Shown in pieces: positions 8,193-27,424 of a stretch of DNA of 64,000 bases (positions are counted from its first letter, which is position 1; each line of letters begins with the position of its first letter). The position numbers and the translations under genes are program-made. Origin of the DNA: Cupriavidus alkaliphilus (GTDB taxonomy: Bacteria > Pseudomonadota > Gammaproteobacteria > Burkholderiales > Burkholderiaceae); assembly GCF_900094595.1 (NCBI RefSeq), contig NZ_FMAD01000002.1:496001-560000 (forward strand), read 5' to 3'. The notes beneath the pieces were generated by a model that ran no database searches, was not told where the DNA came from, and worked only from the letters and a program-made list of their open reading frames with translations.

Positions 8193-10529
8193 ATGGCCCG
8201 AGCTACCACGACCACCCGCACCGATCCCTCAGCCTTGCCATCCCGCATCGGCAAACTGCTGGGCGAGGTCCGCTGGTTCCTGCTGCTGGCCGTCACGCTG
8301 GGTTTCCTGTGCGTGCTGGCCAGCTACAGCAAGACCGATCCCGGCTGGTCGCATGCCAACCAGGTGGCCGATATCCACAACCTGGGCGGCCGCGTCGGCG
8401 CCTGGGTGGCGGATGTGCTGTTCTTCATCTTCGGCTTTTCGGCCTACTGGCTGGCGGTGCTGCTGGTGCGCCGCTGCTGGCGCGGCTGGCGCACGCTGAC
8501 CGCCGAGCTGCCGGAGCGCACCGACCACAGCCTGCACCGCCAGGGTGTGACCGTCAGCTGGATCGGCTTTGTGCTGACCCTGTTCTCCAGCATGGGCCTG
8601 GAGGCGATCCGCATGTACCCGCTGCGGGCCGCGCTGCCGCGCGCGCCCGGCGGGGTGCTGGGCGACCTGCTCGGCGGCTGGCTGCAGGTGGCGCTGGGCT
8701 TTACCGGCGCAACCCTGCTGCTGTTGCTGCTGCTGGCAATCGGGCTGTCGCTGTTCTTCCATTTCTCGTGGCTGACCGTGGCCGAGCAGATCGGCGGCTT
8801 TGTCGAGACCCTGTTCCTTGGCTTCAAGGCCCGCCGCGAGAGCAAGCAGGACCGCATCATCGGCGAGGCCGCCAAGACCGAGCGCAAGGAAACCGTCGAG
8901 GTCCAGCGTGTGCGCATCGAAGAGGCCGCGCCGGTGCAGATCGTGCGACCGCAGGCGGTGCCCAAGCACGAGCGCGTCGAGCGCGAGAAGCAGCAGCCGC
9001 TGTTCGCCGATATCCAGGACTCGGACCTGCCGCCGCTGTCGCTGCTGGACCCGATCCCGCCGCACCAGGAAACCGTCAGCGCCGAGACCCTCGAATTCAC
9101 CTCGCGCCTGATCGAGAAAAAGCTCAAGGACTTCGGCGTCGAGGTCAAGGTGGTGGCGGCCTACCCGGGCCCGGTCATCACCCGGTACGAGATCGAGCCC
9201 GCCACCGGGGTCAAGGGCAGCCAGGTGGTGAACCTGGCGCGCGACCTAGCGCGTTCGCTGTCGCTGGTGTCGATCCGCGTGGTCGAGACCATCCCCGGCA
9301 AGAACTACATGGGGCTGGAGCTGCCCAACCCGAAGCGCCAGACCGTGCGCCTGTCGGAAATCCTGGGCTCGCAGGTCTACAACGAGAGCGCGTCCAGCCT
9401 GACCATGGCGCTGGGCAAGGACATTGCCGGCAAGCCGATGGTGGCCGACCTGGCGCGCATGCCGCACTGCATGGTGGCCGGCACCACCGGCTCGGGCAAG
9501 TCGGTGGGCATCAACGCGATGATCCTGTCGCTGCTGTACAAGGCCAAGCCCGAAAGCGTGCGCCTGATCCTGATCGACCCGAAGATGCTCGAAATGAGCG
9601 TCTACGAGGGCATCCCGCACCTGCTGTGCCCGGTGGTGACGGACATGCGCCAGGCCGGCAACGCGCTGAACTGGGCCGTCGGCGAGATGGAGCGCCGCTA
9701 CAAGCTGATGAGCAAGCTGGGCGTGCGCAACCTGGCCGGCTACAACAAGAAGATCGACGAGGCCGCGGCGAAGGAAGAGAAGATCCCGAATCCGTTCAGC
9801 CTGACCCCGGACGCGCCGGAACCGCTGGAAAAGCTGCCCACCATCGTCATCGTCATCGACGAGCTGGCCGACCTGATGATGGTGGTCGGCAAGAAGGTGG
9901 AAGAACTGATCGCCCGCATCGCGCAGAAGGCGCGCGCCGCCGGCCTGCACCTGGTGCTGGCCACGCAGCGCCCGTCGGTGGACGTGATCACCGGCCTGAT
10001 CAAGGCCAACGTGCCGACCCGGATCGCATTCCAGGTCAGCAGCAAGATCGATTCGCGCACCATTCTCGACCAGCAGGGCGCCGAAACCCTGCTGGGCATG
10101 GGCGACATGCTCTACCTGGCGCCCGGCACCGGCTTGCCGGTGCGCGTGCACGGCGCCTTTGTCTCGGACGAAGAAGTCCACCGGGTGGTGGAGAAGCTCA
10201 AGGAATCCGGCGAGGCCAACTACATCGAGGGCATCCTGGAAGGCGGGCTGACCGATGACGGCGCCGGTGGCGACGGGTTTGGCGGCGGCGCCGGCATCGG
10301 TGGAGGCGGCGGCGAAGCCGATCCGCTGTACGACCAGGCGGTCGAGGTGGTGCTGAAGAACCGGCGCGCGTCGATCTCGCTGGTGCAGCGCCACCTGCGC
10401 ATCGGCTATAACCGCGCCGCGCGGCTGCTCGAGGACATGGAGAAGGCCGGGCTGGTCTCGGCCATGTCGGGCAACGGCAACCGCGACATCCTGGTGCAGG
10501 GTGGCGGCGCCGCGCGCGAAGATGACTGA
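8193..10529 (+). CDS. ftsK: DNA translocase FtsK
   Basis: A septum-anchored DNA pump that clears the chromosome from the closing septum and activates XerCD recombination. The 778-residue protein is the short form: four N-terminal helices (about 25-195), a short charged linker, and a RecA-like motor with Walker A GTTGSGKS at 430-437 and a Walker B in [14 protein letters not shown]. After a glycine-rich hinge it ends in the gamma winged-helix domain that reads KOPS sites. The ATG at 8193 was chosen because it lies downstream of the putative -10 element and begins the conserved part. It is followed by lolA, as in related genomes. Confidence 0.95.
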
Positions 10530-10703
10530 GCGTCGCTCGCGCGGCCTTCGGAATATCGCTCGTAATATCCAGTTACCCGCCGGCGCGTGGCGCGCGGAAT
10601 CCCCGCGCTGACGGCGGCTCTAAAAGGACAGGTCGCACGCGCCCGGCCCCGATGCGATACGGCGGGGCGCGGCACCACCCCTACCACTACCAGGATCCCA
10701 ACC

Positions 10704-11339
10704 ATGCGAAACCGCATCCTCGTGTCGGCTTGCGCCGCGCTGGCGATGTTTGCGCTGCAGGCGCCGGCCCACGCCGCCGCCACCGACCAGTTGCAGAGCT
10801 TTGTGACCGGCGTGAAGAGCGCGCGCGGCGAATTCACGCAGCGTCAGGTCAAGGGGCAGGGCGCCAACGTCAAGGTGACCGGCACGTCCAGCGGCACCTT
10901 CGTGTTCTCGCGTCCGGGCAAGTTCACATGGCGCTATACCAAGCCCTACGAGCAACTGCTGCAGGCCGACGGCCAGACCCTGTACATCTATGACAAGGAC
11001 CTGAACCAGGTCACCGAGCGCAAGCTCGACGGCGCGCTGGGTTCCAGCCCGGCGGCAATCCTGTTCGGCAGCAACGACCTCGACAAGAATTTCGTGGTCA
11101 GGAACGGGCCGACGCGCGATGGCGTGGAATGGCTGGAGCTGACGCCCAAGGCCAAGGACACGCAGTTCGAGCGCATCGGCATCGGTTTCAAGGCCGGCAA
11201 TCTCGAGGCGATGGAGCTGCGCGACGCGTTCGGCAACACCACGCTGCTGACCTTCACCGGCATGCAGAAGAACCCGCCTCTGGCAGCCGATGCGTTCCGG
11301 TTCACGGTGCCCAAGGGCGCCGACGTGATGAAGCAATGA
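10704..11339 (+). CDS. lolA: Outer-membrane lipoprotein carrier protein LolA
   Basis: A periplasmic chaperone that takes lipoproteins from LolCDE and hands them to LolB. The 211-residue precursor has a signal peptide ([24 protein letters not shown], cleaved after residue 24). Family features include the ARGEFTQRQ block, [13 protein letters not shown] and the [11 protein letters not shown] region. The start at 10704 is the methionine directly before the signal peptide; the frame is open further upstream. Its stop overlaps the start of a small lipoprotein gene by the sequence ATGA. Confidence 0.95.
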
Positions 11340-11785
11340 GGGCCGCCATGATCGATGCGCACGAAGGGTCGGCAGGATCGGGAAGAACGTATCGTCGCGG
11401 TGGCGTGGCGTTGCTGGCCGGCGCTGGCGTGCTCGCGCTGGCGGCGTGCGCCAGCAGCGGCGGTGGCGCCAGCAAGTTCGATGTCGATGCCTTCCTGCGC
11501 GCGCCGGATTCGGCGTTGCCCGAAGTGGTCGGCAATCCGGCCTTCCTCGCAGCCACCCGCGTGCCCGCCACCGAATGCGCGGTGATGCTGCAATCGACCA
11601 GCACCGGCGTGCTGGAAGACCTGCCGCCGAGCAGCAACGCGCGCGGCCCGGCCTGGCTGCTGCATCCGAAAGACAAGCCCGGCCAGGTATGGCTGGTGGT
11701 CAGCGAGGCCGGCGGCGAACGTACCTGCCACGGCCCGCTGCCGGCCGACGCGATGAAGACCCTGGCCAGCCGCGCCCGGGGCTGA
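11336..11785 (+). CDS. Small lipoprotein of unknown function
   Basis: Not a family that I recognise. The 149-residue product has an N-terminal basic segment (RTYRRG), a hydrophobic core and a lipobox LAAC with Cys38, so it should be an outer- or inner-membrane lipoprotein. The mature part has two further cysteines (in ATECAVM and ERTCHGP) that could form a disulfide. The start at 11336 overlaps the lolA stop as ATGA, implying translational coupling; the ATG at 11348 is an alternative. The coupling to the lipoprotein carrier gene is suggestive, but no function follows from it. Confidence 0.75.
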
Positions 11786-13159: not shown

Positions 13160-13513
13160 ATGATTACGATGCTTGCCATGATGCGCAGCCGGACCCATCA
13201 ACTGCTGTGGCTGGCGGCGGGCGGCGCGTTGCTGGCCGGCTGCGCCGCCGTCCCGGCGGAGCCAGGGGCGCCGGCACCGGCGCCGGGCCCGCAAGGTTCG
13301 CTCGGCACGCCGGCCGGCTGTGCGGCGGACTAGCTGGCGGACGACGCGCTGGTCGGCAAGCCCGAGGCCGAAGCCATCGGCCTGCTGCAAGGCTGCGCGT
13401 GGCGCCTGGGCGAACGGGACGGCCAGCAGTTTCCCGGCACCATGGACTACAACCCGCAACGGCGCACGCTTGGGATCAAGGCCGGCAAGGTGGTGTGGGT
13501 GCGGCGCGGCTGA
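13160..13513 (+). pseudogene. Peptidase-inhibitor I78-like lipoprotein interrupted by an in-frame TAG
   Basis: An AGGA ribosome site and ATG open a 118-codon frame. It encodes a lipoprotein signal (lipobox LAGC, Cys28), a Pro/Ala linker, and then a domain like the I78 inhibitors (LVGKPEAEAI ... FPGTMDYNPQRRTLGIKAGKVVWV). Codon 58 (13331-13333) is TAG, inside GCGGACTAGCTGGCG, exactly where the inhibitor domain begins. A single C-to-T change from CAG (Gln) would explain it. Both halves keep coherent coding character, so the break looks recent. A 57-residue lipopeptide could still be made. Readthrough or a base-calling error cannot be excluded from sequence alone. Confidence 0.75.
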
Positions 13514-13552: not shown

Positions 13553-13587
13553 CGCGCAAGCGTGACCCAACATGACAGAAATGTAAT

Positions 13588-25029: not shown

Positions 25030-25995
25030 TCAGTCGCGGCGTCTGGCGGGGGCGGCGTCGAAGCTTGCCGTCGGCGCTTCCAGCCGCTGCGGCAGCGTTG
25101 CCGCCAGCGTCTCGGCGGCCTGCGCGAACTGGTCGCGCAGGTCGTCGGCCAGGCTTGAGCCGGCGCGGTGGCTGGCGCGCAGCATCTGGATCTCGAACGG
25201 CAGCACCGGCGCCACGTCATGCAGCGCGACGCGCTCCGCGCTGGCGCTGAGCGCGGTGTACTGGTCCAGCAGGGTCATGCCCAGGCCCGCGTCGACCAGC
25301 GCCAGCGCCAGCGAGTAGGTCTGCACCTCCAGCATCGAGCGCGGTTCCAGCGCGTGCCGCGCCAGGGTCTGGCGCACCAGCAGGCCGAGCGAGCTGTTGT
25401 CGTCATAGCCGATGAAGGCGCGCTCCATCAGCCGCTGCATCGGCACCATGCGGCGGCGCCCGCCGGCGGGCAGCGGTTGCGCGCGCGGCACCGCCAGCAG
25501 CATGCGGCCGCTCGCCACCGGCTCGCTCGAGATGGCCTCGTGCCGAGGCGGGGCGAAGGCAAAGCCCAGGTCGATCTGGTTGGCCAGCAGCGCGCCGACG
25601 ATCTCGTCGGTATGGTGCGTCAGCACCTGCACCTGGGTGTCGGGGTGGCGTGCGCAGAAGCTGCGCACCGCCGGCACCAGCAGCGGGTTGGCCAGGCTCG
25701 GCGTGGCGGCCACGCGCAGCCGGCCCGCACCCTTGTGGCGCAGGCTTTCCGAGACCCGGCGCACGCGTTCGATCTCGCCATATAGCCTTTCGACATCCCC
25801 ATACAGCGCGTTGGCCTCGGGCGTTGCCTGCAGCCGTCCGCGCACCCGCTCGAACAGCCGGAAGCCGAGCGAGGCCTCGGCATGCTGCAGCACGCGCGTG
25901 ACCACCGGCTGCGACACGTGCAGCAGGCGCGCGGCCTCGCTGACGGTGCCGGTCAGCATCACGGCGCGGAATACTTCGATCTGGCGCAGGCGCAT
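25030..25995 (-). CDS. LysR-family transcriptional regulator
   Basis: A 321-residue regulator with an N-terminal winged helix-turn-helix (residues about 1-60: MRLRQIEVFRAVMLTGTVSE, VSQPVVTRVLQHAE) and a LysR substrate-binding domain after residue 90. The chosen ATG gives the standard LysR length; the frame is open further upstream. It is divergent from the D-amino-acid dehydrogenase gene with 145 bases between, so it probably controls that gene in response to an amino acid, as is usual for LysR pairs (inference). The effector is unknown. Confidence 0.92.
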   Translation of the reverse strand: MRLRQIEVFRAVMLTGTVSEAARLLHVSQPVVTRVLQHAEASLGFRLFERVRGRLQATPEANALYGDVERLYGEIERVRRVSESLRHKGAGRLRVAATPSLANPLLVPAVRSFCARHPDTQVQVLTHHTDEIVGALLANQIDLGFAFAPPRHEAISSEPVASGRMLLAVPRAQPLPAGGRRRMVPMQRLMERAFIGYDDNSSLGLLVRQTLARHALEPRSMLEVQTYSLALALVDAGLGMTLLDQYTALSASAERVALHDVAPVLPFEIQMLRASHRAGSSLADDLRDQFAQAAETLAATLPQRLEAPTASFDAAPARRRD

Positions 25996-26140
25996 GGCGT
26001 CCGGGGCGTGGTGGAAAGGGCGTGGCAAGGCGGCGATTGGCGCCCATAGCCTGAAGACATATTCTGGCACGTATTCGCATTGGGCAAGCCGGCGCGCTTG
26101 CACTACGCTCTGCCTGATGGACACGAGCAAAGGAAAGGCA

Positions 26141-27424
26141 ATGCGGGTGGTGATCGTGGGCGCGGGCGTGGTGGGCATGACCACGGCATGGCGCCTGGCC
26201 GAGGATGGCCACCAGGTGACGGTGCTCGAGCGCCACGACGGCCCCGGCGAGGAAACCAGCTTTGCCAATGGCGGGCAGCTGAGCTACAGCTACGTGGCGC
26301 CGCTGGCGGGGCCGGGCGTGCTGGCCAAGGTGCCGGGCTGGCTGCTGCGGCGCGATTCGCCGATGCGCTTTCGCCCGGCGGCGGACCCGGCGCAGTGGCG
26401 CTGGCTGGCCGCCTTCATGTCCGCCTGCAACAGCGCCACCAGCGAGGCGACCACGCGCAAGCTGCTGCGGCTGGGCTTCTATTCGCGCGACCTGATGCAG
26501 GCCTTCGTGGCCCGGCACCAGCATGACGACGGCGGCGCCGGCTTCCATTTTGCGCGGCGCGGCAAGCTGGTGGTGCACCGCGACGCGGCGGCGTTTGATT
26601 CGGCCTGCCGGCTGCTGGACTACCAGGCCAGCCTGGGCTGCGAGCAGCAGGCGCTGGACCGCGATGCCTGCGTGGCGCTGGAGCCAGCGCTGGCCGGCAT
26701 CCGCGACGACATTGCCGGCGCGATCCATACCCCGAGCGAGGAGGTGGGCGACTGCCATCGCTTCTGCCTGTCGCTGGCACGGTTGCTGCAAGACGGCGCG
26801 TACGCGGGCGTGTCGATGCGCTTTGGCACCGTCGTGCAAGGGCTGGTGCAGCAGGGCGGGCGCGTCACCGGGGTGCGTACGCCGGCCGGGGTGGTGCCCG
26901 CCGACGTGGTGATCGTGTCGGGCGGCATCGGCAGCGTGCCGCTGCTGCGCCCCCTCGGGGTACGGCCGATGCTGTGGCCGCTCAAGGGCTACAGCATCAC
27001 GGTGCCGCTGGCCGGGGGCGCGCAGGCGCCGCATATCAGCGTGACGGATTTTGCCAACAAGATCGTTTATGCCCGGATCGGCAATACACTGCGGGTGGCA
27101 GGCATGGCCGACCTGGTGCGCGGCGGCACCCGCATCGATCCGGAACGGGTCGGCACGCTGGTGGCCCAGACCCGCGCGTTGTTTCCCGGCATCGTGCCGG
27201 ACCAGCCGCTGGCGCAGCTGCAGCCGTGGGCCGGGCTGCGACCGGCCACGCCGGATGGCCTGCCGCTGGTGGGACCGTCGCGGGTGTCGGGGCTGTGGCT
27301 CAACCTGGGCCACGGCGCGCTGGGGTTTACGCTTGCGATGGGCAGTGCCGGCCTGCTGGCCGACCGCCTGGCGGGGCGCCGTCCCGCCATCGACGCAGAG
27401 GATTTCGACGCCGCGCGCGCCTAG
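26141..27424 (+). CDS. FAD-dependent D-amino acid dehydrogenase (DadA family)
   Basis: Oxidatively deaminates D-amino acids to 2-oxo acids, passing electrons to the respiratory chain at the inner membrane. The 427-residue protein has the dinucleotide motif GAGVVG at residues 7-12, followed by VTVLER, and typical DadA/glycine-oxidase blocks such as FANGGQLSYSYVAPLAGPGV and the C-terminal PWAGLRPATPDGLPLVG and GHGALGFTLAMGS. The start follows AAAGGAAAGGC. It is divergent from a LysR regulator and upstream of a GltI-type binding protein. No alanine racemase (dadX) is adjacent, so the substrate is uncertain. Confidence 0.9.
   Translation: MRVVIVGAGVVGMTTAWRLAEDGHQVTVLERHDGPGEETSFANGGQLSYSYVAPLAGPGVLAKVPGWLLRRDSPMRFRPAADPAQWRWLAAFMSACNSATSEATTRKLLRLGFYSRDLMQAFVARHQHDDGGAGFHFARRGKLVVHRDAAAFDSACRLLDYQASLGCEQQALDRDACVALEPALAGIRDDIAGAIHTPSEEVGDCHRFCLSLARLLQDGAYAGVSMRFGTVVQGLVQQGGRVTGVRTPAGVVPADVVIVSGGIGSVPLLRPLGVRPMLWPLKGYSITVPLAGGAQAPHISVTDFANKIVYARIGNTLRVAGMADLVRGGTRIDPERVGTLVAQTRALFPGIVPDQPLAQLQPWAGLRPATPDGLPLVGPSRVSGLWLNLGHGALGFTLAMGSAGLLADRLAGRRPAIDAEDFDAARA

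What the first reader, a model, noticed from the sequence alone, without database searches (positions are those of the whole stretch)
13160..13513. Inhibitor lipoprotein gene split by a single TAG at codon 58
The frame is coherent on both sides of the TAG, and one base change (CAG to TAG) would restore a full I78-type inhibitor lipoprotein. The break falls exactly at the linker-domain border. Recent inactivation, strain-specific loss, or programmed readthrough are all possible.
Basis: partly seen in the sequence, partly recalled or inferred. Interest (0 to 1): 0.55.

Follow-up and report, generated by a model that had tools for sequence, protein, structure and literature searches.

The report
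Recently broken inhibitor-like lipoprotein gene
A small gene for a surface-anchored, protease-inhibitor-like protein has been cut short by one stop codon in this Cupriavidus genome while intact copies persist in its relatives: an ordinary, recent gene loss.

Summary
In detail: one in-frame TAG (window 13331-13333, codon 58) splits a 117-codon lipoprotein frame. The genome is a Cupriavidus. Of the 59 other genomes of the genus searched, 46 hold an ortholog, none with a stop inside; 13 have none. The half after the TAG is not old decay: its 59 codons equal one relative's residue for residue, with 0 own-lineage amino-acid changes where about 6.0 are expected had it been neutral along the whole own branch (P about 0.0025). 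Best reading: a recent, lineage-specific nonsense mutation. Programmed readthrough finds no support: no relative shares the stop, 0 of 55 tRNAs read UAG, no PylS above cut-off, no unusual downstream RNA fold. An assembly error cannot be excluded without reads. In one relative the same locus was replaced by mobile-element DNA, so the gene is expendable. Low interest.

The parts
13160..13510 (+). Interrupted gene: small lipoprotein with a CI-2/I78-like domain (117 codons, one of them TAG)
13160..13240 (+). Signal peptide of the lipoprotein type (residues 1-27)
   Evidence: sequence; the aligned cysteine C28 is invariant in 44 of 44 aligned orthologs; lipobox rule recalled
13241..13243 (+). Lipobox cysteine C28 (L-A-G-C); +2 residue is alanine, so outer-membrane sorting is expected (Lol rule recalled)
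13244..13318 (+). Ala/Pro-rich linker, variable among relatives
13319..13321 (+). First invariant domain cysteine (C54), still translated
13331..13333 (+). In-frame TAG, codon 58; a sense codon in all 49 orthologs read
13334..13510 (+). Untranslated remainder of the inhibitor-like domain (59 codons), amino-acid sequence still intact
13394..13396 (+). Second invariant domain cysteine (C79), lost from the product
13439..13447 (+). T-M-D, matching the T-M-E reactive-site loop of I78/CI-2 inhibitors (inferred P2-P1-P1')
   Evidence: P1 assignment recalled from CI-2

Best explanation
The locus held, until recently, a working gene for an outer-membrane lipoprotein that carries a CI-2/I78-like serine-protease-inhibitor domain on a short Ala/Pro linker. 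In this lineage a single nonsense mutation just inside the domain ends translation: the product is at most a 30-residue mature lipopeptide (signal peptide removed) with one of the two domain cysteines and none of the inhibitory loop. There is no in-frame ATG, GTG or TTG between the stop and codon 95, so no restart can rescue the domain, and such a product would lack the export signal. The gene is a very young pseudogene or null allele. Shown: the stop, the intact remainder, the absence of the stop from relatives, the constraint. Inferred: inhibition of a serine protease, outer-membrane location, loss of function, recency.
For: One TAG in frame. 46 of 59 other genomes of the genus have the gene without a stop; all 49 orthologs read have a sense codon there. 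The window is collinear with two near relatives over the 64 kb at about 95-96%. Downstream of the TAG: 0 amino-acid and 9 silent codon differences to L002; own-unique changes 2 silent, 0 replacement among 10 close sequences. The own-branch rate at fourfold sites, 453 of 9881 = 0.046, gives 6.0 expected replacements if neutral for the whole branch, P(0) = 0.0025, so the region was unconstrained for at most about half of that branch. No in-frame ATG/GTG/TTG between the stop and codon 95. No paralog with the domain in the genome. The gene is expendable: 13 of 60 genomes lack it, and in G019 the stretch between window 11766 and 13567 is replaced by 2.7 kb holding a MerR/resolvase-type recombinase gene.
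Against: No second strain of the same species was available, so fixed, polymorphic and single-isolate states cannot be told apart. No reads: a wrong base call would look the same. The constraint test uses two relatives and parsimony, on one stretch of 59 codons; constraint on the untranslated half is also what an assembly error or readthrough would give.
Confidence: 0.86

Rival explanations
1. The TAG is a base-calling or assembly error in a 34-contig draft and the gene is intact.
For: Constraint downstream is complete; a single codon is all that is wrong; reads are not available.
Against: Of 52 conserved frames compared in the 64-kb window this is the only clear interruption; the three others flagged have other explanations, so the sequence is not error-rich.
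Confidence: 0.1
2. The TAG is read through (programmed or leaky) and makes both a short lipopeptide and the full inhibitor.
For: Both halves are in frame and undamaged. TAG is a rare stop in this window (3 of 46 gene ends examined).
Against: 0 of 49 orthologs share the stop; 0 of 55 tRNAs have a CUA anticodon; PylS matches only below cut-off, and such matches also ring in 13 of 14 control genomes, only one of which is over the cut-off; the 100 nt after the TAG fold no better than shuffles, z = -0.59.
Confidence: 0.03
3. Old decay: the downstream half has been dead for long.
For: Only the stop itself.
Against: No replacement change downstream where about 6.0 are expected over the own branch; no relative shares the stop.
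Confidence: 0.01

Closest known systems
Peptidase inhibitor family I78 (Pfam PF11720; AFUEI, PDB 3w0d)
   Same: Small lipoprotein domain; shared end section around T-M-[DE]-Y-N-x-x-R (hhalign 95%); the model matches 3w0d, Z 5.1 over 63 residues; the profile of this family finds two I78 proteins at E 1.4e-5 and 2.6e-4 (their places overlap two I78 hits)
   Different: Single members stay under Pfam's cut-off (9 of 44 match, best E 0.024). The C-terminal cysteine invariant in the I78 set (9 of 9) is absent; a second invariant cysteine sits mid-domain instead (44 of 44)
Potato inhibitor I family (CI-2, eglin c; MEROPS I13, recalled)
   Same: Best structural matches: CI-2 and eglin c, Z about 6.2 over 56-59 residues; Foldseek probability up to 0.98
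   Different: No convincing sequence match in the PDB search; lipoprotein with a cysteine pair, which CI-2 and eglin c lack (recalled)
Nonsense pseudogenes in bacterial genomes
   Same: One in-frame stop, intact remainder, intact orthologs in relatives
   Different: Nothing

Membership tests
Recent nonsense pseudogene | In-frame stop absent from orthologs | tested here: met
   0 of 46 orthologs in other genomes of the genus with a stop inside; 0 of 49 with a stop at that codon
Recent nonsense pseudogene | Remainder still shows past purifying selection | tested here: met
   0 replacement changes downstream against 6.0 expected if neutral
Recent nonsense pseudogene | No functional product | not testable with these tools
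   needs proteomics or a reporter
Recent nonsense pseudogene | Stop confirmed in reads | not testable with these tools
   no reads held
Peptidase inhibitor I78 (PF11720) | Score above Pfam gathering cut-off | tested here: not met
   no hit for the window protein; 9 of 44 orthologs match at E up to 1, best E 0.024; no own-genome hit
Peptidase inhibitor I78 (PF11720) | Remote profile similarity | tested here: met
   hhalign 95.1%, over 26 end columns only; profile A1 hits two I78 proteins
Peptidase inhibitor I78 (PF11720) | Cysteines at domain start and in the C-terminal CG | tested here: not met
   the start cysteine is present, the C-terminal one is replaced (RRG)
CI-2/eglin-like fold | Fold match covering the domain | tested here: inconclusive
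   Z up to 6.2 over 56-59 residues, no row at Z 8 or more, though nearly all rows are CI-2, eglin c, plant trypsin inhibitors or AFUEI; Foldseek best E 0.046
Bacterial lipoprotein | Lipobox with invariant cysteine after a signal peptide | tested here: met
   L-A-G-C28; cysteine invariant in 44 of 44; acylation not testable
Programmed stop readthrough | Stop conserved among relatives | tested here: not met
   0 of 49
Programmed stop readthrough | Decoding tRNA for UAG | tested here: not met
   0 of 55 tRNAs found by Rfam; PylS below cut-off

The most novel reading that the evidence does not exclude
The intact relatives form a separate branch of I78/CI-2-fold inhibitors: outer-membrane lipoproteins, mostly of Cupriavidus, that keep the T-M-D loop and supporting arginines but have moved the second cysteine from the C-terminus into the middle of the domain, and that current family models miss. 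Their target would be a periplasmic or external serine protease, and lineages such as this one drop the gene when that protease is absent.
Probability: 0.4. Interest if true: 0.3.

Novelty: new member of a known kind. Interest (0 to 1): 0.14.

Why it matters
Little for the TAG itself: it is one more young null allele. The useful by-product is a family of small lipoproteins with a likely CI-2/I78 fold that Pfam does not catch, present in 47 of 60 genomes of the genus (counting this broken one) and absent from the others, which makes its role testable by gene removal.

Tried and rejected
Programmed or suppressor readthrough: rejected for want of conservation, of a UAG-reading tRNA, of a PylS above cut-off and of a special RNA fold. 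Old decay: rejected. Restart inside the gene: no ATG/GTG/TTG in frame between the stop and codon 95; CTG follows the TAG directly, but a product from it would have no signal peptide. A second copy in the genome: none; other hits of the family profile cover the signal-peptide/linker part or a 21-residue end only. Pfam and NCBIfam hits of orthologs other than I78 are weak and mostly of the lipoprotein/signal-peptide kind. The PDB sequence search with the family profile found nothing convincing. Literature: five searches listed no paper on this Cupriavidus gene by title; I saw listings with the starts of abstracts, and passages only of PMC12106433 and PMC8954713. The former calls an I78 protein of another genus uncharacterized; the latter describes AFUEI as an elastase inhibitor.

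Rows dropped: five of 49 orthologs (L023, L029, L045, L061, L063) were left out of alignment A1 because my start rule found no start. L045 (Variovorax J22P240) lies at a contig end and has an in-frame stop upstream, in a stretch unlike its sister L046; I do not count it as intact. Thirteen Cupriavidus loci were left out of the 49 as the same contigs as genomes, judged by equal contig lengths; two of these copies, L032 and L031, stand in A1 for L003 and L002. In the broken-gene baseline 57 frames were chosen, 52 had a match in the window and 4 were flagged: this gene; a 5' extension upstream of a D-amino-acid dehydrogenase start; a minus-strand frame opposite an ABC ATPase gene; and a methyltransferase frame whose first 47 residues do not align. 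These and the gene itself were left out of the rate.

Full report
What is there. Window 13160-13513 on the + strand reads as 57 codons, a TAG at 13331-13333, 59 codons and a TGA. Open frames are common in this GC-rich stretch, so the frame alone shows little. Homology decides: a read-through with X at the stop matches 46 of 59 other genomes of the genus along one frame, and none of the 46 has a stop inside. Named hits are Cupriavidus (C. neocaledonicus 96%, Cupriavidus sp. WGlv3 96%), with more distant ones in Pandoraea and Variovorax.

Anatomy. The product has a lipoprotein signal peptide ending in L-A-G-C28, a variable Ala/Pro linker, and a domain starting about C54. In 44 aligned orthologs the lipobox cysteine, both domain cysteines, T-M-D and two arginines after it are invariant, among other columns. 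The stop comes three residues after the first domain cysteine. There is no in-frame ATG, GTG or TTG before codon 95, so the domain cannot be restarted, and a restart product would lack the export signal.

What the intact protein is. The window protein gives no Pfam match; 9 of 44 orthologs match the I78 model weakly, best E 0.024. A model of an intact relative (L032; domain blocks of pLDDT 83-95, whole-chain mean 71) matches CI-2, eglin c and the I78 inhibitor AFUEI, with Z up to 6.2 (AFUEI 5.1), and nearly all rows listed are CI-2, eglin c, plant trypsin inhibitors or AFUEI. The scores are middling (Z under 8, Foldseek E 0.046 at best), but the list is uniform. Profile comparison with nine I78 proteins gives 95% over the end section only, and the profile of this family reaches two I78 proteins in another genus. 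The I78 profile in turn aligns its T-M-E loop to AFUEI and CI-2. So the fold and loop are inhibitor-like; inhibition itself is inferred. It differs from the I78 set in its cysteines: I78 has one at the domain start and one at the C-terminal end; this family has the first and one mid-domain.

The position of the stop among relatives. All 49 orthologs read have a sense codon there: lysine in 44, glutamine in 2, and N, R, G once each. Intact copies exist; that is as far as I take it.

Age. The 59 downstream codons differ from L002 (the C. neocaledonicus contig) by 9 silent and no replacement changes; among ten close sequences the own-unique changes there are 2 silent and 0 replacement. Over 17,162 codons of the window compared with G031 and G022, own-unique changes are 683 silent and 140 replacement, and fourfold sites changed at 453 of 9881. 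At that rate 6.0 replacements are expected in the 131 replacement sites downstream if neutral throughout; none was seen, P about 0.0025, which allows neutrality for at most about half of the branch. The loss is recent relative to the split from the nearest sampled species (about 4-6% away).

Sequence quality. Of 52 conserved frames compared in the window, only this one is clearly interrupted (the three others flagged are explained through). This makes a generally poor assembly unlikely, but a single wrong base cannot be ruled out.

Readthrough. 55 tRNA matches were found in the genome and scanned for their anticodons (using loci and 18 stretches): no CUA anticodon. tRNA-Leu with anticodon UAG reads CUA and is no suppressor. 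No tRNA-Ile with GAU anticodon appears in the list, so the set found is not complete. The PylS model gives only sub-threshold matches of the kind seen in 13 of 14 control genomes. The RNA after the TAG folds like shuffles (z = -0.59; two relatives -0.41 and -1.01).

The gene is expendable. 13 of 60 genomes show no match to the whole domain; 3 of the 13 fall outside the completeness and contamination limits of the tally, and in one of these, G045, the locus fetched ends inside the neighbouring gene. In G034, G006, G026 and G029 homology at the locus runs from the lolA side to the solute-binding-protein gene, with neither the dehydrogenase nor this gene matched between them. In G019 collinearity stops at window 11766 and resumes at 13567, with 2.7 kb in between carrying a MerR/resolvase-type recombinase, as in IS607-like elements (recalled). 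Neighbours in the window are lolA, a zinc alcohol dehydrogenase and ABC transporter genes for a solute-binding protein, a permease and an ATPase.

Verdict. A young nonsense null of an inhibitor-like lipoprotein gene, most likely real, with an assembly error as the main rival. Ordinary.

Noticed in passing
L159 about 9024-11707 (G019), matching the gap between window 11766 and 13567: In a relative the dehydrogenase gene and this lipoprotein gene are both replaced by 2.7 kb with a MerR/resolvase-type recombinase and a second frame that may be a TnpB-like protein (no Pfam hit for the part read).
   Followed up: partly
L045:1-150: The Variovorax J22P240 ortholog lies at a contig end; its 5' part is unlike its sister L046 and holds an in-frame stop, so it may be a second broken or rearranged copy.
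   Followed up: partly
window 13160-13510 and orthologs (alignment A1): A family of lipoproteins with a likely CI-2/I78 fold and a displaced second cysteine, missed by the Pfam and NCBIfam models.
   Followed up: partly
window 25882-26039: One-base length difference against G031 upstream of the D-amino-acid dehydrogenase start at 26141; probably outside the gene.
   Followed up: partly
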